This document shows positions 56,558-64,000 of a stretch of DNA of 64,000 nucleotides, one piece after another. Under the pieces are notes generated by a model. The model made no database searches. It was not told where the DNA came from and worked only from the letters and a program-made list of their open reading frames with translations. Numbering within the stretch: position 1 is the first letter of the stretch; each line of letters starts with the position of its first letter. Source of the DNA: Shouchella oshimensis (GTDB lineage: Bacteria; Bacillota; Bacilli; Bacillales; Bacillaceae_D); assembly GCF_002019765.1 (NCBI RefSeq), contig NZ_KV917380.1, positions 3,769,836 through 3,833,835 on the forward strand. Reading direction: 5' to 3'. The position numbers and the translations under genes are program-made.

Positions 56558-56633
56558 ATTATCTACTTCCTAATAACGCCCCCTATTTTTAATAAATAGA
56601 TCGAATAAATAATTTATTGAAATGAGGGAACAA

Positions 56634-57929
56634 ATGAGTATATACATAGGTGAAAAAATTAGACATTTAAGGATATACAGAAAACTTTCTCAATCAGAAT
56701 TGGTAGAAGGCATTTGTTCAGTTGCCTATTTAAGTCGAATTGAAAACGGCAAGACGAAGCCATCAAAACAATTTCTAGATAAGATTTCGAAAAGGTTAGA
56801 CGTTACTATCGACATAATGGATCATAACAGTTCAACTAGTCTACAAGACAAGATTGTAAATGTACTCAATACAGTAGAGGGAGAATCTAAATCGTTATCG
56901 AACGAAGGGGAAGCTCTCCTTAGAATGTCTCTATTAGAATTTATTCAACCTTCTCTCCTCATTAGAGTGTTTTCAGTCTTATTAAATCATTCAATGACAA
57001 AAGGTGAAATGAATGATGCAGACACTATTTATCGTTCTAACATAAACTTAATTGATGTAAAAGATAACACCGAGTTTAAAGACCTTAACGAACAACAGAT
57101 TTATTTTAGGCTTCATAATATATTAGGGAAGTATTTTTACTCCAAACAGAATTTCTCCCAAGCCCATTACCATTATTCAATATCAGAAAATTTAAACGTC
57201 GATAACACAACTATTGAAAGTGCCAAACTCTATTATAATATTAGCTTAGTCAAACAACGCATTATGGAAGACAAATCAATTGCCCTTTACTATTGTAAGA
57301 AATCATATGATCTATTCCTAAAATTAGGTGATACCGAAAACATAGTAAATGTATTAGTTACCCTTGGCGTTCAATATCACTTGCTTTCACAATATGATAA
57401 ATCCTTACGTACTTTACAAGAGACTGAACGATATTTAGCTGACTTAAATGTAAAAAATAAGAATCGTTTGTTTACCATGATCACATATAATATTGGTAAA
57501 GTGTTTCAAAAGCTCGAGAAGTATGACGAAGCCATTGTTTATTACAATAAAAGTTTAGCTAACCTCGAAAGTGACGTTAGTAAAGTATACGTTTTGAAAG
57601 GCTTATTAGAAATAAAACTCTTAAAAAAAGAATGGACAGAGGTTAAAGACCTTTTAGATACATGCTTACATTTGGTCGATCAACACCAAATGAGCTATTT
57701 AGACATTGAATTACATGTCATTAAAGCCATTGTTTTTAAACAAAGAGGTGATTTTCTTAACTACGAAAAATTATTAAAACGTACAATTGAACGTGCTGAA
57801 AAAGATAGCCATTCCATACTAATAAAGAAAATGGCAGAAGAATTAGCTCATTATTACTTTGAGTTGAAATTTTACAAAAAATCTTCCGAGTATTACTTAA
57901 TGGCACTTAACCATTCTTCAAGTGTGTAA
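56634..57929 (+). CDS. RRNPP-family quorum-sensing regulator (HTH + TPR, NprR/PlcR-like)
   Basis: Residues ~1-60 are an XRE helix-turn-helix with the RRNPP signature: IGEKIRHLRIYRKLSQSELVEGICSVAYLSRIENGKTKPS. The remaining ~370 residues form about nine TPR-like helix pairs (LHNILGKYFYSKQNFSQAHYHYSIS, YNIGKVFQKLEKYDEAIVYYNKSLANLE). The size matches NprR (about 423 aa), whose TPRs bind a re-imported peptide. ATG 56634 (MSIYIGEK) is chosen over 56622 because GAGGG then forms the ribosome binding site. A secreted small peptide gene of the expected kind lies 1.3 kb away (59202-59327); the pairing is inferred. Confidence 0.88.
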   Translation: MSIYIGEKIRHLRIYRKLSQSELVEGICSVAYLSRIENGKTKPSKQFLDKISKRLDVTIDIMDHNSSTSLQDKIVNVLNTVEGESKSLSNEGEALLRMSLLEFIQPSLLIRVFSVLLNHSMTKGEMNDADTIYRSNINLIDVKDNTEFKDLNEQQIYFRLHNILGKYFYSKQNFSQAHYHYSISENLNVDNTTIESAKLYYNISLVKQRIMEDKSIALYYCKKSYDLFLKLGDTENIVNVLVTLGVQYHLLSQYDKSLRTLQETERYLADLNVKNKNRLFTMITYNIGKVFQKLEKYDEAIVYYNKSLANLESDVSKVYVLKGLLEIKLLKKEWTEVKDLLDTCLHLVDQHQMSYLDIELHVIKAIVFKQRGDFLNYEKLLKRTIERAEKDSHSILIKKMAEELAHYYFELKFYKKSSEYYLMALNHSSSV

Positions 57930-58007: not shown

Positions 58008-58613
58008 TTAAACAACTTCTAACGAGCAATCGTAGCTGCCTACACGATCAATAAGGTCTTTTCTTATATAAAGAAACCCTTGAACATTCGTAATGACCTT
58101 TTGTTTTTTTAATTCATTCAAGAGTTTCGTAACCGTTACTCTACTAGAGAGAATGAGACTGGATAAATGTTCGTGTGTCAACGGAATGTTTAGAATGTAA
58201 TACTGGTTTTCAATTTCACCAAACTCTTGGGACAAGAATTGCAATAAATAAACCAACCTATTTTTCACAAATTTCTTTCTTTTAATGTGATTAATCAATT
58301 CTGTTCTCATTGTTGTGGTAGCTACTTTATTAAGTAAGTAGTATTTCTCCTCTATTTTGTGAAGAGAATCCCATTTGTATAAAATTAACTGTGCCTTTTC
58401 TTTATTCGTTCTAAACTCATATACACTATTGATGCTAGGATCTGGCAGTCTCACAGCATCGTCTGGCTTTAAAACATTAATGAGTATTTCTACCCCATCA
58501 TTGTGTAATTCCCATAATTGCAACGTTCCTTCTTGTAGATAATAGACATACCCTGACTCCATACTGACAATTTGATCGTCACTTAAAAGAATTTCTTTAC
58601 ATTCATTTAACAT
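58008..58613 (-). CDS. Crp/Fnr-family transcriptional regulator
   Basis: A 201-aa protein with an N-terminal cyclic-nucleotide-type barrel (MESGYVYYLQEGTLQLWELH, ILINVLKPDDAVRLPDP) and a C-terminal winged helix (IPLTHEHLSSLILSSRVTVTKLLNELKKQKVITNVQGFLYI). No cysteine cluster or cAMP-binding arginine signature is apparent. ATG 58613 has AAGGTGGAG upstream and overlaps the end of the preceding gene by 11 bases, so the two are translationally coupled; the longer frame to 58736 is in the neighbour. Crp-like proteins regulate several peptide-antibiotic clusters; its placement suggests control of this one. Confidence 0.85.
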   Translation of the reverse strand: MLNECKEILLSDDQIVSMESGYVYYLQEGTLQLWELHNDGVEILINVLKPDDAVRLPDPSINSVYEFRTNKEKAQLILYKWDSLHKIEEKYYLLNKVATTTMRTELINHIKRKKFVKNRLVYLLQFLSQEFGEIENQYYILNIPLTHEHLSSLILSSRVTVTKLLNELKKQKVITNVQGFLYIRKDLIDRVGSYDCSLEVV

Positions 58614-59199
58614 GTTCAACTCCACCTTTTTTTTTAATCCAATGAAGTAGTCTAAGGTTGAAATTAGTATTAAGTAATGGAAAGGTAATGACTTCTGGAT
58701 GTTCAATCGAAGTGCTTTCGCAATTGAGATCTCCATGTAGATGGATTAAATCATTCAATTGATCAGACAGTTTTTCATTCACTGAACATTGATTAGGACT
58801 GTCAGTTAAAAAGCTAATGAGTAAAGAGCCCTTGAGGTTTAATCTTTCTTGAACGACTGTAAGACTTTCAAAAAAACGCCTATAATCCTCTTTCCCAAAC
58901 AAGTAAACAAATTCATTCTTTCGGATATTTACATAATATACCCCAGCAGATTCCATGCGGTTAATCACATTATTTTCTGTAGCAACAATTATAGGTAAAC
59001 CGCATTCTTCTTTTCTAAGAGACCGTAAAACATCAAATATGATTTGACTTAATACATCCTTATCAATCGTGTAGTCAATTAACCTCACTTGGTTTTGTTG
59101 ATCTTCTTTAAAAATCACGCACGGAGTAGAAATAGGGTGCTTATTGCATACTTTTTGAGTTAGTTCACTTGTTGCTACCAAAAACTGTTGATGGTTCAT
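58603..59199 (-). CDS. unrecognised 198-aa protein between the small peptide and the Crp-like gene
   Basis: I do not recognise this protein. It is soluble in appearance, with no signal peptide or membrane span. Visible features: one cysteine pair early (VCNKHPISTPCVIF), a mixed alpha/beta middle (IIVATENNVINRMESAGVYYVNIRKNEFVYLFGKEDYRRFFESL, LLISFLTDSPNQCS) and a basic end (HWIKKKGGVEHVK). Its ATG lies two bases after the stop of the 41-aa peptide gene and its stop overlaps the Crp-like gene, so the three are one coupled unit. It may be a partner that senses or processes a signal for the regulator; nothing in the sequence settles this. Confidence 0.7.
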   Translation of the reverse strand: MNHQQFLVATSELTQKVCNKHPISTPCVIFKEDQQNQVRLIDYTIDKDVLSQIIFDVLRSLRKEECGLPIIVATENNVINRMESAGVYYVNIRKNEFVYLFGKEDYRRFFESLTVVQERLNLKGSLLISFLTDSPNQCSVNEKLSDQLNDLIHLHGDLNCESTSIEHPEVITFPLLNTNFNLRLLHWIKKKGGVEHVK

Positions 59200-59201
59200 A
59201 A

Positions 59202-59327
59202 TTAAACTAATGGACCCTCAGGATCGCCGAATGGACCTGGTTGATATTCATCAGAAGCTACGTCAAGGGTTGATCCTCCAGCTACTAACAACAAGCTTAC
59301 CATTACACTAAACAGTATTTTTTTCAT
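59202..59327 (-). CDS. 41-aa secreted signalling-peptide precursor (Phr/PapR/NprX-like)
   Basis: AAAGGAGAG stands seven bases before the ATG. The product has the layout of an RRNPP pheromone precursor: MKK, a hydrophobic signal segment (ILFSVMVSLLLVAGG), then a short acidic C-terminus (DVASDEYQP, then GPFGDPEGPLV). Mature pheromones of this class are the last 5-7 residues, so something like DPEGPLV is a candidate. No cysteine is present. It is the first gene of a coupled trio (peptide, 198-aa protein, Crp-like regulator) and faces an NprR-type receptor gene 1.3 kb away. A Dha-forming RiPP precursor is unlikely, given the Sec-type signal. Confidence 0.7.
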   Translation of the reverse strand: MKKILFSVMVSLLLVAGGSTLDVASDEYQPGPFGDPEGPLV

Positions 59328-59712
59328 CTAATCGCTCTCCTTTATTAGTTGTTACATGAATTGTATCGTTACATTCTGATTAATAAGAAGAGGTTAAATT
59401 ATTGTAAATTAAACATACATAAAGTGCTTTTATGAAGGCCTTACTTAACTACTCACTCAAGTAGATTAACAGCTAGTTAAAACTTACAGATTCCTACTTC
59501 CCACAGCATTTTAAATTGTTTCCATTAAAAAATGATAAGAAGAGCTTGTTTTATAGTGATCATCACGTAACGTAACCACAATCTAAATCTCCAATGGGAA
59601 GAGAAAACGGACGGACTACTATGCATTAAAAATACCGTCTGGAACTGGAGTGATCTTCTTCCAATCCCATGACGGCTTGCTTACAATCATTTATTTTATT
59701 GTTCATACGCCT
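59328..59712. other. intergenic stretch between the signal-peptide gene and the lanB C-terminal gene
   Basis: About 385 bases. It holds a probable -10 (TACAAT) close upstream of the peptide gene on the minus strand, a GTAACGTAAC sequence near 59567-59576, and a 26-codon frame (59626-59706) that I do not accept as a gene. No terminator hairpin was found, so read-through from the lanB-like genes is possible. Confidence 0.4.
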
Positions 59713-60714
59713 TTATGACACGGAGGCCTTATTCAGACTTTGCACTGGATAATCTGACAATTCCTTTTCCGAAAAATTTAACCGAGCGATCACGTAATTC
59801 ATGTAGAAGCGATCCATATTGGTTAAACCTAAAAGTAACAATTTTTTGTATAAAGCATTTGTGACCCATCTGTTAGCAATTAAAACCTCATTGTATAAAT
59901 AGATATGCATATTCTCTTTTGCAAAAGTAACTTGATGTCTTTTGGAAGCATATTCAATCTTTTCATCAATATGAGAACGATCAAAAGGCATATAGAAGTT
60001 AAGATCTTTCCTTTCTATTAAAGGGCGTAATTTATAAAAGAAACCAAGTAAATTCTCCGTTAAAGCTGTTGAAGATAGATCGAAATTCAACAAGCCTTCT
60101 TTCGAATCACTTTCAAACCTCCGTTTAAAATCGTTTTCTACTAGTTCTTTATCCTGAGCATTTAAACGATTAATAAACGCAACATAGTGAGAAAGATGAC
60201 AATTATAAGCTTGATGTTCAACAACATAAGTCTCTAGTTGTTCATATTCTGTCATTTTATGATGAAACTTCATTATTTCAGCAATAATTGGGTGTAAAGC
60301 ATTTTCTTCAAAATAATATTCGCTAAAATAATGATCAAAAATTTTATTCGACTCTTTAAACAAATCATCTTCTAATTTTTCATTAAAAATAAGATCCTCT
60401 TCTTTAACGATAACGTCGTTCTTCAAAATGGGGTTAAATGGGTTAGCATGTCTTAATATAGTTGCTGTAGATTGATAGTTTCTACTAAATTCCGCCTCAT
60501 CAAAACTTGTTAAAGAGCAATTCACGCCTGCTTTAAGCTCTTTTAACATCCACGATAAATCACTGCGACGAATCGTTCCTCTAAGGTGCAAGTGATAGCC
60601 ATTTTCCCACCCTTTATCAATCATAAAGTTGTAATTCTTTATAAGTTTTTTTATGGTAGCCTTTAATTCTTGAGATGGTTCTACCACATAACATTTAATA
60701 CTATAATGCTCCAT
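59713..60714 (-). CDS. LanB C-terminal-type (elimination domain-like) protein, split from the dehydratase
   Basis: A 333-aa protein resembling the stand-alone thiopeptide-type bacteriocin biosynthesis (lantibiotic dehydratase C-terminal) family. In full LanB enzymes this domain removes glutamate from glutamylated Ser/Thr to leave dehydroalanine or dehydrobutyrine. KGWENGYHLHLRGTIRRSDLSWMLKEL (~35-61) corresponds to the conserved N-terminal part, and HPIIAEIMKFHHKM plus CHLSHYVAFINRL to the later helices. The ATG overlaps the stop of the 953-aa partner by 14 bases. Similarity is modest and judged by eye. Confidence 0.65.
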   Translation of the reverse strand: MEHYSIKCYVVEPSQELKATIKKLIKNYNFMIDKGWENGYHLHLRGTIRRSDLSWMLKELKAGVNCSLTSFDEAEFSRNYQSTATILRHANPFNPILKNDVIVKEEDLIFNEKLEDDLFKESNKIFDHYFSEYYFEENALHPIIAEIMKFHHKMTEYEQLETYVVEHQAYNCHLSHYVAFINRLNAQDKELVENDFKRRFESDSKEGLLNFDLSSTALTENLLGFFYKLRPLIERKDLNFYMPFDRSHIDEKIEYASKRHQVTFAKENMHIYLYNEVLIANRWVTNALYKKLLLLGLTNMDRFYMNYVIARLNFSEKELSDYPVQSLNKASVS

Positions 60715-63562
60715 TTTTTAATACTCCCTCCTGAAGGTAGTAACGAATGTTTGAAAATGAGAACCTCATATATTGATTGGTTTCCAATTCTAGTTCTCTC
60801 TTAAAAGGAAAATGACGATTCATTGCCATATGAACAATGCTTTGTACAATGTAAAACAAGTAATCATCTGATAATCGTAGTCTCTTAGCTGCTATTAACA
60901 GATCTGCTGCTAACTGATTGTATTCAATTAGCAATGGATGTGATGTTTCATTGTAATCCTTTAACGCTTGTAACACGATTCCACGGTAATTCGTGCGTTT
61001 TTTTGCAAATGGTTTAACATATTTGCTCTCTTTCTCTATACTGCTTTCAATGTACTGGAACAACAGATTTGTATCTTTCCCAAGCAATCCATATAATACA
61101 TAGCTAGAGAGATACAATGCACTTTCACTCTCATTGTAAGGTGCGTAAGCTTGTTTCAATACATTTAGTAACTTTGTTTCAGCCGAAAACAATGTATACA
61201 CGAGATTGTATAGCCCATTTCCACCATATCTGTTCACTTCAGGCCGAAACAACGTTTTTTGGAAATCGTATAAACACCCTGATGAAAGCATTGAGGATAA
61301 GATTTCTTCCCATTTACTCTCTGTTTCGAGATTCTTTTTGTATCGTACGCGCATATGTTCTTTCTTATTCTCATCAATATAATTCACAATAAATACATCT
61401 TCTAACAAGTGATCTTTTTCATTTAACGCCAAAATCATGTTTTCTACTTTTTCTCTTTTACCACTTCTGTAGTACAAATGATAAGAATTTATACAAGGGT
61501 CTATTTTTTCTTTTAATTTTTGTGCATGTACGATTTGCTTAGTATCGAGGTCAAAGGTCCCTTGATTTTGGTTATACTGTTTTGATGAATAGATCCAATC
61601 GCTGACTTCTTCAGTCGATTCATCTAATTCCGGCGCTTCCATTAGTACAAGCTGATCCTTCTTGCTTATACAACTTTCCAAAAATAACATAGCCTCCTCA
61701 TTATTGAGAGGTACAGGTAGCGTTTTATCTCCCTCCAAAAAATAAATATATTTATTTTGATTCAAGCTGTACTTATTTAAGAGGTCGCTAATCTTCTTTA
61801 CTCTTTCCGTTTTCGTACTTTCATGCTCAAATTTGATATTGACTCTAGCAGGTGACACAATGAGATTTTTGTATTCAATCCTAGGGATATATTCCAAATA
61901 AGAGAAATTTTCGATAGGGAAGTTATTCGGGTACTCGAAACAGTACCTAGAAAATTCACTTAGAAAGACTAAAGCAGGATGTTCATTAAAGTTTCGATAA
62001 CTGAACAAATGAGTTGATACAGGATAGATGATTTGATCTTTGTGGATCATATGAAGGCGATTCTTATGGGCAACCATATCGATTTCATTTAGGGGAATTC
62101 TCCCTTTTAATCGATCAGTGTGGCCGATGCAATCGATAAACGTATTGCTCTCTGATCGATAAGTTAAACCGACATCTTTAAAATAATTGCTCATATAGCT
62201 TAATTCTGAATAGCCATGGGAATCCACTCCTTTACTCCCCTTACAAGACGAAAAACGACCTGTAAAAGAATAACGAGGGAAAGAAAACGCGTTAGGAGGT
62301 AAAAGAAATCCAGCCTTACTCTCCACAATCTTGCAATCAAATGAAATAGGAATCCTACCGTCCCCTTTTTTCCCGTATAACGCTTTAATCGATAAAAAAT
62401 CTTCTTCAGTAAGGGTAAGCGTTGGTTTATCGCTCACTCTATGCCACTGCATCATTTTGTTCAGAATGTATTTTTCAATTCGATTATCTCTATCATCAAA
62501 AGACAGGTGCTGCATAAAACCCAGCCCAGCATCTTTATTTATCATCTCAAGTAAAGGGACTCTTGTGTAAAAGCCATATTTCCCTATAAACCGATTGTAA
62601 TAGTTGTTCCAATCGATCCCTTGGTGTTTGTCAAAAAAAGCCATTAATTCTAGGGATTCTCCATTATCAAGGGCCTGTTTAATTTGTTCTTTATTCTCCA
62701 AAGAATCGTATATAGACAAATCAACAAGTAAATATGAGGAACTTTTGCACAATGCCGCCATTTTTGAAACTAACGCTTTGTATACGTCAATCCCTTTGCC
62801 AACTTCCAATTCCTTATAGTTATGTATTAATTCTTTAATTGTTTTTATAGATGAAACTAATTCAACATCGTACTTACTGTAGCTTAAAAGGCTTTCTAAA
62901 AAAGCATCAGCATCTCTATTGATAGAATAAGTAGAAAGTTCAGTTTTTATAATATCTGATTTTAGTAGCTCTTGTATAACTCCTAACACTAGAGCTTTTT
63001 GAGAGTCTTGATATTGATCTAATAGTGTCTGACTATAAATAGGTGATCTTAAGGAATCGAACAAGTCTTTCAAAAACCTGGAACTTTCTAAATAAATGTA
63101 GGCCGTATTTTCTTTTGAAAACGTCTCTAACAAAAACTGTTGATCTTTCTCGTATAGTTTTGGATTTAACGTCAGTTTTATGTTGGAAAACGTAAGAATA
63201 GAATTTTCGAGTTTTTTTATTACATTTTGTTCCCACTCCACAGATATACTTACCTGTTTTAATTCGGTCCGCCCACGAAAACGGTCACTGTCATTCGTAC
63301 AGATTCCTGAGTTCATACGGTTAGGCTGCGGTCTCGCCGCCATTCTTAATAAATAGTTCACTACGGTTTTTTTTGTTTTTTTATCGATCTTTCTGTCTTC
63401 ATCAACAATTTTTTTTAACTTATTGTATAGGGGAGTACTATTTAGTAATATCCTTTCCAAGAAAGCCGAGTCTCTTATTACTTCATGCAAATACTCATCT
63501 TCTTCTTCAGTAAACAATTTGCGCACAGCAGAGAATTTTAATGCGGCTTTTCTTTTAATCAT
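60701..63562 (-). CDS. LanB-type lantibiotic dehydratase, glutamylation part
   Basis: A 953-aa protein of the lantibiotic dehydratase N-terminal family, which transfers glutamate from glutamyl-tRNA to Ser/Thr of a precursor peptide. Family features are VNYLLRMAARPQPNRMNSGI near residue 70-90 (the RxxxRPxPfg motif region), SFPRYSFTGRFSSCKGSKG, LKGRIPLNEIDMVAHKNRLHMI and YIPRIEYKNLIVSPARVNIKF, typical of LanB middle regions. The elimination part is absent and is supplied by the next gene, as in thiopeptide and goadsporin clusters. AAGGAGGAG precedes the start. It lies 135 bases downstream of the precursor genes. Confidence 0.85.
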   Translation of the reverse strand: MIKRKAALKFSAVRKLFTEEEDEYLHEVIRDSAFLERILLNSTPLYNKLKKIVDEDRKIDKKTKKTVVNYLLRMAARPQPNRMNSGICTNDSDRFRGRTELKQVSISVEWEQNVIKKLENSILTFSNIKLTLNPKLYEKDQQFLLETFSKENTAYIYLESSRFLKDLFDSLRSPIYSQTLLDQYQDSQKALVLGVIQELLKSDIIKTELSTYSINRDADAFLESLLSYSKYDVELVSSIKTIKELIHNYKELEVGKGIDVYKALVSKMAALCKSSSYLLVDLSIYDSLENKEQIKQALDNGESLELMAFFDKHQGIDWNNYYNRFIGKYGFYTRVPLLEMINKDAGLGFMQHLSFDDRDNRIEKYILNKMMQWHRVSDKPTLTLTEEDFLSIKALYGKKGDGRIPISFDCKIVESKAGFLLPPNAFSFPRYSFTGRFSSCKGSKGVDSHGYSELSYMSNYFKDVGLTYRSESNTFIDCIGHTDRLKGRIPLNEIDMVAHKNRLHMIHKDQIIYPVSTHLFSYRNFNEHPALVFLSEFSRYCFEYPNNFPIENFSYLEYIPRIEYKNLIVSPARVNIKFEHESTKTERVKKISDLLNKYSLNQNKYIYFLEGDKTLPVPLNNEEAMLFLESCISKKDQLVLMEAPELDESTEEVSDWIYSSKQYNQNQGTFDLDTKQIVHAQKLKEKIDPCINSYHLYYRSGKREKVENMILALNEKDHLLEDVFIVNYIDENKKEHMRVRYKKNLETESKWEEILSSMLSSGCLYDFQKTLFRPEVNRYGGNGLYNLVYTLFSAETKLLNVLKQAYAPYNESESALYLSSYVLYGLLGKDTNLLFQYIESSIEKESKYVKPFAKKRTNYRGIVLQALKDYNETSHPLLIEYNQLAADLLIAAKRLRLSDDYLFYIVQSIVHMAMNRHFPFKRELELETNQYMRFSFSNIRYYLQEGVLKNGAL

Positions 63563-63604
63563 ATGTACTCCTCCTTATGAGTTAAATCAAATTGTTCGAT
63601 TTTT

Positions 63605-63626
63605 TAACGTATTATTAGTAACGTAT
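63605..63626. promoter_or_regulatory. TAACGTAT direct repeat upstream of the lanB-like gene
   Basis: TAACGTAT at 63605-63612 and again at 63619-63626, 14 bases apart, between the precursor genes and the dehydratase gene. The same octamer occurs upstream of the RRNPP-type regulator (56550). It is a candidate regulatory site. Confidence 0.4.
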
Positions 63627-63641
63627 ACGAATAGTAAATAA

Positions 63642-63673
63642 TTGTGTGGCATGGATCTAAGCACACCACACAA
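63642..63673 (-). terminator. hairpin between precursor and dehydratase genes (attenuator-like)
   Basis: TTGTGTGG and CCACACAA form a perfect 8-bp inverted repeat with a 16-base loop. On the minus strand it is followed by TTATTTAC, a weak T tract. Such partial terminators after precursor genes let cells make much more precursor than enzyme. Confidence 0.6.
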
Positions 63674-63697
63674 CCTTTTCGGAGAATAGATTCAAAC

Positions 63698-63838
63698 TTA
63701 GTTTGCTAGTTCTGGTCGAATAATCACTGATGCATAAATGGATGCTTCCATTTCTTGCATAACTGTTGATGACTTTACGCTATAATCTTCTAGTTTTACA
63801 TTAATATCATTTGAATTGATTACTTTTTTGTTTTCCAT
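63698..63838 (-). CDS. RiPP precursor peptide 1 (46 aa, no cysteine)
   Basis: The start is ATG 63838 with GAGGAG upstream; the frame is open further but without a site. The leader part reads MENKKVINSNDINVKLEDYS, with the LEDY segment in the place of the FNLD-type recognition motif of LanB substrates; the rest is rich in Ser/Thr (VKSSTVMQEMEAS) and ends YASVIIRPELAN. There is no cysteine, so lanthionine rings cannot form; dehydrated Ser/Thr is the expected change. It is the gene directly upstream of the dehydratase. A second copy encoding the same C-terminal sequence follows at 63899. No relative is known to me. Confidence 0.75.
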   Translation of the reverse strand: MENKKVINSNDINVKLEDYSVKSSTVMQEMEASIYASVIIRPELAN

Positions 63839-63898
63839 TTTAGGACAGCTCCTCTTTTTTTGTTTTTTTGATTTTATAGGCTGGTCATGCTTATACAA

Positions 63899-64000
63899 TT
63901 AGTTTGCTAGTTCTGGTCGAATAATTACTGATGCATAAATAGATGCTTCCATCTCTTGCATAACTGTTGATGACTTTACGCTATAGTCTTCTAGTTTTAC
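63899..64000 (-). CDS. RiPP precursor peptide 2, cut by the window edge
   Basis: The last 33 codons of a second precursor gene in tandem with the first. The visible protein, from VKLEDYS to the end RPELAN, is identical to that of precursor 1. The DNA differs at four positions, all silent. It is separated from precursor 1 by 60 bases that carry the ribosome binding site. The start, and any further copies, lie to the right of the window. Confidence 0.8.
   Translation of the reverse strand, partial: VKLEDYSVKSSTVMQEMEASIYASVIIRPELAN

What the first reader, a model, noticed from the sequence alone, without database searches (positions are those of the whole stretch)
58008..64000. RiPP cluster with a split LanB dehydratase and cysteine-free precursors
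A LanB-type protein (953 aa) and a separate elimination-domain-like protein (333 aa) follow at least two precursor genes whose peptide has no cysteine. Split LanB enzymes are known from thiopeptide and goadsporin pathways, but no azole-forming YcaO/dehydrogenase or LanC gene lies in the visible part. The product could be a linear dehydro-peptide, or a peptide with a modification not yet described. Firmicute chromosomes with this combination are not known to me.
Basis: partly seen in the sequence, partly recalled or inferred. Interest (0 to 1): 0.85.

Follow-up and report, generated by a model that had tools for sequence, protein, structure and literature searches.

The report
Azole-free pyridine-ring peptide gene cluster
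A Bacillus-related bacterium carries a small gene set that probably turns a short peptide into a ring closed by a pyridine, like thiopeptide antibiotics but without their azole rings, using a one-piece dehydrating enzyme and probably an unusually small ring.

Summary
The genes are real, but the dehydratase is not split. The 953-aa protein is a complete LanB: it matches both Pfam LanB families, and the glutamylation and elimination residues checked are kept. The 333-aa protein is not an elimination domain. Its AlphaFold model matches the [4+2] pyridine synthases TbtD/PbtD (first 12 PDB hits), and its Tyr289 aligns with their catalytic Tyr (PbtD Y293). Four tandem precursor copies, one complete in the window, encode the leader end ...MQEMEA and the core SIYASVIIRPELAN, without cysteine. 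No YcaO or LanC gene lies in the cluster. Four more genomes carry the enzymes (one as a contig fragment). All 20 precursor copies seen in four genomes (5 distinct cores) have Ser1 and Ser5 and no Cys. A sister lineage has the same fused LanB plus synthase, but keeps YcaO and a core Cys. Best reading: a pyritide pathway with a fused (LanB_A-type) dehydratase. It would dehydrate Ser1 and Ser5, join them into a pyridine, and eject the leader, leaving an 11-membered ring. MroD, the known pyritide cyclase, closed nothing below 14. The pyridine and ring size are inferred, not shown. New variant of a known kind.

The parts
63698..63838 (-). Precursor gene, copy 1: MENKKVINSNDINVKLEDYSVKSSTVMQEMEA | SIYASVIIRPELAN (46 aa, no Cys)
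   Evidence: SD-like AAGAGGAG before ATG; four tandem copies, three of them in a 201-bp register; same peptide x4 in a same-genus genome (L017)
63899..64000 (-). Precursor gene, copy 2, cut by the window edge (full copy 63899-64039; copies 3 and 4 lie outside at 64100-64240 and 64301-64441, window numbering continued)
   Evidence: window position = L002 position + 56000
60701..63562 (-). Full-length LanB dehydratase, 953 aa: glutamylation domain 31-624 and elimination domain 694-927 in one chain
   Evidence: PF04738 2.7e-45; PF14028 3.8e-13; TIGR03891 8.9e-16, above the cut-off; seven-sequence profile against NisB 1e-59; catalytic columns invariant in seven LanBs
59713..60714 (-). [4+2] aza-cyclase / pyridine-synthase-like protein, 333 aa (overlaps the LanB end by 14 bp)
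   Evidence: weak NF045556 TbtD_PbtD matches, far below the cut-off; AF2 pLDDT 85.7; top 12 PDB hits TbtD/PbtD; hhalign; Tyr289 = catalytic Tyr
59202..59327 (-). 41-aa peptide with an N-terminal signal-like stretch (by eye) and a conserved QPGP(F/Y) tail; probable secreted signalling peptide for the TPR regulator (inferred)
   Evidence: homologues in L017, L018 and L025 next to the same genes
58603..59199 (-). 198-aa conserved protein of unknown function
   Evidence: homologues in L017, L018, L025 (95, 36, 40% identity); no Pfam family over its cut-off; AF2 model unreliable (pLDDT 42)
58008..58736 (-). Crp/Fnr-type regulator, 242 aa
   Evidence: PF13545 1.8e-9; homologues in L017, L018, L025
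56622..57929 (+). HTH plus TPR regulator, 435 aa (RRNPP-like, probable peptide-sensing regulator; function inferred)
   Evidence: HTH_3 3.1e-10, TPR_12 1.9e-11; 97, 58 and 56% identical homologues in L017, L018, L025
55102..56367 (-). MFS transporter, 421 aa, probable product exporter or self-protection pump (inferred from linkage)
   Evidence: PF07690, PF05977; 99, 73 and 74/71% identical homologues in L017, L018 and L025 (two copies)

Best explanation
This is a pyritide-type (azole-free, thiopeptide-related) RiPP cluster with a one-piece LanB. Proposed order of events: (1) the leader and a hydrophobic stretch after Ser5 are recognised; (2) the 953-aa LanB glutamylates Ser1 and Ser5 from Glu-tRNA and eliminates glutamate in the same chain, giving two dehydroalanines; (3) the 333-aa enzyme performs a formal [4+2] aza-cycloaddition between Dha1 and Dha5, and Tyr289 helps aromatise the product to a pyridine, expelling water and the leader as a C-terminal amide, so no protease is needed; (4) the result is a pyridine-bridged ring with an exocyclic tail (VIIRPELAN, if not trimmed). 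By the published ring sizes (second Ser at core position 6 or 7 gives 14 or 17 atoms) Ser1 to Ser5 gives an 11-membered ring; calculated [M+H]+ 1474.805 for the untrimmed product; (5) the linked MFS protein probably exports it, and a secreted peptide with its TPR regulator probably controls expression. Shown by sequence and model: gene content, homology of both enzymes, kept catalytic residues, conserved Ser1/Ser5, absence of Cys and of azole genes. Inferred: substrate, Glu-tRNA use, pyridine, ring size, export, regulation.
For: The AF2 model of the 333-aa protein (pLDDT 85.7, pTM 0.83) hits only TbtD/PbtD in its first 12 PDB matches, E 9.7e-9 to 2.3e-6; the next, NisB, has E 4.3e-3. hhalign against six Bacillota TbtD-family proteins (themselves matching TbtD/PbtD in the PDB at E 3e-37 to 3e-34): probability 98.5 over 301 columns; against three elimination-type proteins: 3.1. 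Tyr289 is invariant in all 9 rows of A3 and aligns with PbtD Y293 (8ejz is the Y293F variant) and, by my count with a three-residue tag, TbtD Y319, which a review describes as key to catalysis. LanB: seven-sequence profile against NisB E 1e-59; NisB R83, R87, D299, R464 and R786, R826, H961 all have their counterparts. All 20 precursor copies seen in four genomes (5 distinct cores: SIYASVIIRPELAN, SYVGSVIIVTK, SWVGSVITIDR, SGVMSIIVITRP, SGVASIIIITKP) have Ser1, Ser5 and no Cys. The leader end (M-E-A | S) matches the sister precursors (M-G-A | S). No match to YcaO or its two companion genes in 4 of 4 azole-free loci, against YcaO in 14 of 15 other Bacillota loci with a TbtD-family match. Purifying selection on LanB and synthase (dN/dS 0.154 and 0.142, one genome pair).
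Against: The synthase scores only 20.8 bits against NF045556, cut-off 325, and phmmer/hmmsearch found no PDB relative by sequence. None of the Bacillota comparison proteins passes that cut-off either (0 of 398 genomes). Of 19 invariant columns of the six Bacillota synthases, 17 align, and only 5 keep the same residue in all nine rows of A3; conserved E105, R194 and E198 (L037 numbering) are replaced, so the active site is remodelled. LanB: NisB T89 corresponds to Q79, and PFGLFSG to PNRMNSG, in this lineage; use of Glu-tRNA is not shown. MroD did not form 8- or 11-membered rings (PMC9247985). No product is known.
Confidence: 0.72

Rival explanations
1. The 333-aa enzyme is a [4+2] cyclase but makes something other than an 11-membered aromatic pyridine: a dehydropiperidine that keeps the leader, an intermolecular dimer, or a ring using another Ser (for example the leader Ser at -9).
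For: Remodelled active site; MroD could not close 11-membered rings (PMC9247985); a leader Ser at -9 is present in all five distinct azole-free precursors.
Against: The Tyr linked to aromatisation is kept in 9 of 9. The leader Ser is not fixed in the sister lineage: Ala in most precursors, Ser in L020 and L074, Asp in L075. Ser1 and Ser5 are the only Ser in any of the five cores.
Confidence: 0.18
2. The product is a linear (dehydro)peptide; the 333-aa protein is a second or spare elimination domain, i.e. a split LanB.
For: Elimination domains and [4+2] synthases share one fold; NisB appears in the fold search at E 4.3e-3.
Against: LanB already has an elimination domain with its residues kept; hhalign 98.5 against 3.1; catalytic Tyr kept.
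Confidence: 0.06
3. Azoles are added in trans by a YcaO cluster about 220 kb away, so it is an ordinary thiopeptide.
For: A YcaO match over the Pfam cut-off exists at genome 3,608 kb (30.2 bits).
Against: The core has no Cys; three other genomes with the cluster (G031, G396, G782) have no YcaO match; the distant gene sits among neighbours of its own that look like a separate RiPP cluster (by eye).
Confidence: 0.02
4. The LanB is an aminoacyl-tRNA ligase (PEARL-like) that adds amino acids to the peptide C terminus.
For: Altered motif next to the counterparts of NisB R83/R87.
Against: PEARLs typically lack the elimination domain (PMC11962472, passage); here it is present with its catalytic residues kept.
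Confidence: 0.02

Closest known systems
Pyritide A1/A2 pathway of Micromonospora rosaria (MroB, MroC, MroD; PMC9247985)
   Same: Cys-free precursors, no azole genes, LanB-type dehydration of two core Ser, dedicated [4+2] cyclase, hydrophobic residues right after the second Ser
   Different: Dehydratase is one chain here, two proteins there; ring would be 11-membered (14 and 17 there); 6-9 residues after the second Ser instead of 3; Bacillota, not an actinomycete; 4 to 7 near-identical precursor copies per genome. MroD itself was not available for comparison
TbtD / PbtD pyridine synthases (thiomuracin, GE2270)
   Same: Fold and catalytic Tyr
   Different: Only 13-16% identity in the structural alignments; three polar positions conserved in the Bacillota comparison set are replaced; thiopeptide systems with azole enzymes and split LanB (partly recalled)
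   Same: Fused LanB immediately before a homologous synthase; similar leader; core starts at Ser after MGA
   Different: Keeps YcaO and two companion genes (no family match, taken by position as the ThiF-like and oxidase partners), and often a MATE-like transporter (by eye); core S-xxxN-S-C-S with one Cys
Class I lanthipeptide dehydratases (NisB, MadB)
   Same: Domain layout and catalytic residues of the 953-aa LanB
   Different: No LanC beside it and no Cys in the precursor

Membership tests
Pyritide (azole-free; class-defining six-membered N-heterocycle) | Precursors without Cys and no azole-forming genes | tested here: met
   20 of 20 precursor copies in four genomes; no match to YcaO or its companions in 4 of 4 loci; no YcaO in 3 of 4 whole genomes, a distant one in the own genome
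Pyritide | Dedicated [4+2] aza-cyclase homologous to TbtD/PbtD with catalytic Tyr | tested here: met
   weak by single-sequence score (20.8 of 325 bits)
Pyritide | Two core Ser, the first directly after the leader, available for Dha formation | tested here: met
   Ser1 and Ser5 in 5 of 5 distinct cores; the leader/core border is inferred from the sister and Mro precursors
Pyritide | Pyridine or related ring in the product | not testable with these tools
   needs MS/NMR of the product
Pyritide | Separate glutamylation and elimination proteins (LanB_B, as described for thiopeptides and pyritides in PMC11962472) | tested here: not met
   one 953-aa chain with both domains; a usual trait rather than the class-defining one
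Thiopeptide | YcaO cyclodehydratase and azole-forming residues | tested here: not met
   no Cys in the core
Class I lanthipeptide | LanC in the cluster and Cys in the core | tested here: not met
   the only LanC-like match of the genome lies in an 878-aa protein about 206 kb away

The most novel reading that the evidence does not exclude
A separate branch of [4+2] aza-cyclases, found so far in Bacillaceae and kin, naturally closes 11-membered pyridine rings, smaller than the 14-membered limit reported for MroD, on azole-free peptides dehydrated by a one-chain LanB. It arose by loss of the azole genes from a fused-LanB thiopeptide lineage, and is run by its own peptide quorum-sensing pair.
Probability: 0.4. 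Interest if true: 0.75.

Novelty: new variant of a known kind. Interest (0 to 1): 0.58.

Why it matters
[quoted passage not shown] A second, distant azole-free lineage with natural core variants would show how azoles can be lost from a thiopeptide pathway. It would offer two enzymes instead of three for making pyridine macrocycles, and would test whether [4+2] cyclases can close rings below 14 atoms.

Tried and rejected
Split LanB: rejected. LanC or Cys precursor just outside the window: looked for and absent. Azole formation in trans: unlikely. Relatives in viral contigs: none found with six peptide patterns. Direct sequence search of the PDB with the 333-aa protein or its profile: nothing. 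Fold of the 198-aa protein: model unreliable (pLDDT 42), so not searched further. Rfam over L002 2000-10000: no match at gathering scores. Tree of 22 synthases: the azole-free group is one clade (100/100) inside the fused-LanB group (100/100), but the branch that would nest it within the azole-bearing rows has only 84/87 and the tool warns of long branches, so loss of azole genes is a lean, not a result.

Rows not followed: of the 14 genomes matching at E <= 0.01, six weak ones (E 0.0015 to 0.0092) were dropped; of the 15 other genomes, one (G566, a weak match with stops inside) was not fetched.

Prior print: searches listed no paper that I could recognise as an azole-free pyritide in Bacillota. 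Of the 13 papers I opened six, one of them largely read (PMC9247985, parts 1-3 of 4), the others by passages; of the 6 papers I looked at passages of four. The founding pyritide paper (Hudson 2021) and the two TbtD/PbtD mechanism papers are not held, and the supplement of PMC9247985 with its table of natural precursors was not seen, so earlier listing of these precursors cannot be excluded.
Full report
WHAT IS THERE. The window ends inside a minus-strand gene set. One search shows a 953-aa ORF (60701-63562), a 333-aa ORF (59713-60714) overlapping it by 14 bp, and the end of a precursor array. The own genome is one contig, so I read on to the right. There are four tandem precursor copies (63698-63838, 63899-64039, 64100-64240, 64301-64441 in window numbering). 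Three 201-bp units were compared: two are identical and the third agrees at 194 of 201 bases. Each copy encodes the same 46 aa apart from one K/R position: MENKKVINSNDINVKLEDYSVKSSTVMQEMEA, then SIYASVIIRPELAN. Beyond the array come a glutaminase-like gene and genes that look unrelated (by eye); no YcaO, LanC or protease gene was seen there. A different MFS-like ORF lies about 3.6 kb further right.

THE DEHYDRATASE IS WHOLE. Pfam places PF04738 at residues 31-624 and PF14028 at 694-927; TIGR03891 scores 58.6 bits against a cut-off of 48.45. A profile of seven relatives matches NisB along its length (E 1e-59) and MadB (8.1e-90). From these alignments the glutamylation residues known for NisB (their roles recalled, positions counted) have counterparts: R83 to R73, R87 to R77, D299 to D281, R464 to R436. 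R4 aligns with R14 of MadB. The elimination residues R786, R826 and H961 correspond to R740, R778 and H911. All are invariant among the seven LanBs. Two changes stand out in the azole-free lineage: T89 to Q79, and PFGLFSG to PNRMNSG.

THE 333-AA PROTEIN IS A PYRIDINE-SYNTHASE RELATIVE. It has no Pfam match and a weak NCBIfam match to TbtD_PbtD pyridine synthase (20.8 bits, cut-off 325). In an alignment of nine sequences AlphaFold2 gives pLDDT 85.7 and pTM 0.83. Foldseek's first 12 PDB hits are all TbtD or PbtD (E 9.7e-9 to 2.3e-6, query TM 0.58-0.67); NisB follows at 4.3e-3. Profile comparison gives probability 98.5 against six Bacillota proteins and 3.1 against three elimination-type proteins. 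I picked both sets: the six are NF045556 matches, all below that family's cut-off but matching TbtD/PbtD in the PDB at E 3e-37 to 3e-34; the three come and were judged elimination-type by their H-I-R-x-R, RYGG and HM..NR motifs. A review reports that TbtD Y319 is key to catalysis (PMC12018205, passages), and PDB entry 8ejz is the PbtD Y293F variant. PbtD Y293 lines up with Y289, invariant in 9 of 9 rows; TbtD's Tyr falls at 322 of the printed chain, which I take to be Y319 with a three-residue tag. Against this: of 19 columns invariant in the six Bacillota synthases, 17 align and 5 are identical in all nine rows (G39, H41, S175, H260, Y289); E105, R194 and E198 are replaced.

RELATIVES. The synthase was found in 2 of 41 genomes of the own family (own genome and G031), and strongly in 7 of 397 of the order (own, G031, G396 and four of the sister lineage; seven more matched weakly, E 4.4e-5 to 0.0092, one of which, G299, is a separate thiopeptide-like locus). 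A scan of one genome per species (GTDB r220) gave 9 loci (pattern-based, so not exhaustive). G031, of the same genus, carries the whole set at 93-99% identity with four precursors. Halobacillus litoralis (G396) and Virgibacillus sp. YIM 98842 carry it, and a Lentibacillus salicampi contig of 3.3 kb carries the synthase and the end of LanB, at 53-58% identity for LanB and synthase. Precursor copies seen in window genome, G031, Halobacillus, Virgibacillus: 4, 4, 5 and 7. All 20 have Ser1 and Ser5 with three variable residues between them, then (V/I)-I, and no Cys. With profiles made from the sister lineage, none of the four full loci has a match to YcaO or its two companions, whereas 14 of 15 other Bacillota loci with NF045556 matches have YcaO; the fifteenth is an 11.8-kb stretch with no LanB or synthase match either. 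Three of the four whole genomes have no YcaO match.

THE SISTER LINEAGE. YcaO is confirmed by Pfam in L019; its two neighbours there match no Pfam or NCBIfam family, and I take them by position as the ThiF-like and oxidase partners. Most precursors share a leader (EVYEVSS.TVL..MGA) and have cores S-xxxN-S-C-S; L075 is divergent. Aligned from the tail, Ser5 here corresponds to Ser8 there, which follows the single Cys (my alignment by eye). The tree puts the azole-free synthases in one clade inside this fused-LanB group (100/100); nesting among azole-bearing rows has 84/87 support.

HOW IT WOULD WORK. In PMC9247985 (parts 1-3 of 4 read) MroB and MroC make two Dha, and MroD joins them to a pyridine and ejects the leader as an amide. 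Both leader and C-terminal tripeptide are recognised. Rings of 14 and 17 atoms for Ser6 and Ser7 give the rule 2 + 3(n - 2), which also gives the 11 and 8 atoms of the shorter variants that MroD did not close. Ser1 to Ser5 gives 11. The conserved hydrophobic stretch after Ser5 would stand for the tripeptide. Calculated product [M+H]+ is 1474.805. That no protease gene was seen in the cluster fits leader ejection by the synthase. The MFS gene (99, 73 and 74/71% identity in three loci, more conserved than LanB) is the likely exporter. The 41-aa secreted-looking peptide with a conserved QPGP(F/Y) and the HTH-TPR regulator are a likely quorum-sensing pair. These last two assignments rest on linkage only.

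SELECTION. Between the window genome and G031, dN/dS is 0.154 for LanB, 0.142 for the synthase, 0.124 for the 198-aa protein, 0.181 for Crp/Fnr, 0.072 for the TPR regulator and 0.020 for MFS.

NOVELTY. A 2025 PNAS paper says that in some cases, including thiopeptides and pyritides, the two LanB domains are separate proteins (PMC11962472, passages), and a 2025 review says almost all pyritides are thiopeptides (PMC11920963, passages). My searches showed no azole-free pyritide reported in Bacillota, but the library holds open-licence papers only and the key precursor tables were out of reach. I rate it a new variant of a known kind.

Noticed in passing
L002:8690-8940 (window numbering 64690-64940, just right of the precursor array): Interspersed repeat of about 220-250 bp: 40 matches scored of 85 candidates in the own genome, the other copies 88-92% identical; no Rfam match in L002 2000-10000. 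Nature unknown.
   Followed up: partly
L019, L020, L021, L022, L027-L029, L031, L074, L075: A fused-LanB thiopeptide-like lineage with YcaO and a single core Cys (S-xxxN-S-C-S; divergent in L075), apparently making small-ring products with at most one thiazole.
   Followed up: partly
window 59202-59327 (-) and 56622-57929 (+): Secreted-type 41-aa peptide with conserved QPGP(F/Y) beside an HTH-TPR regulator in four genomes: candidate new peptide quorum-sensing pair.
   Followed up: partly
G000:C1 about 3606400-3611300 (L035:6412-11313): Separate RiPP-like gene group: one YcaO match over the Pfam cut-off and neighbours that look YcaO-like, ThiF-like and ABC-transporter-like by eye.
   Followed up: no
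G000:C1 about 3623200-3625900 (L036:7244-9880): 878-aa protein with a LanC-like match and a kinase-like middle part (by eye), class III lanthipeptide synthetase type, with ABC-like genes nearby.
   Followed up: no
LanB residues 80-86 (window 60701-63562, -): The PFGLFSG motif of other LanBs is replaced by P(N/S)R(M/I/L)NSG in the azole-free lineage, next to the glutamylation arginines.
   Followed up: no
window 58603-59199 (-): Conserved 198-aa protein without a family, beside the Crp/Fnr gene in all four full azole-free loci.
   Followed up: partly
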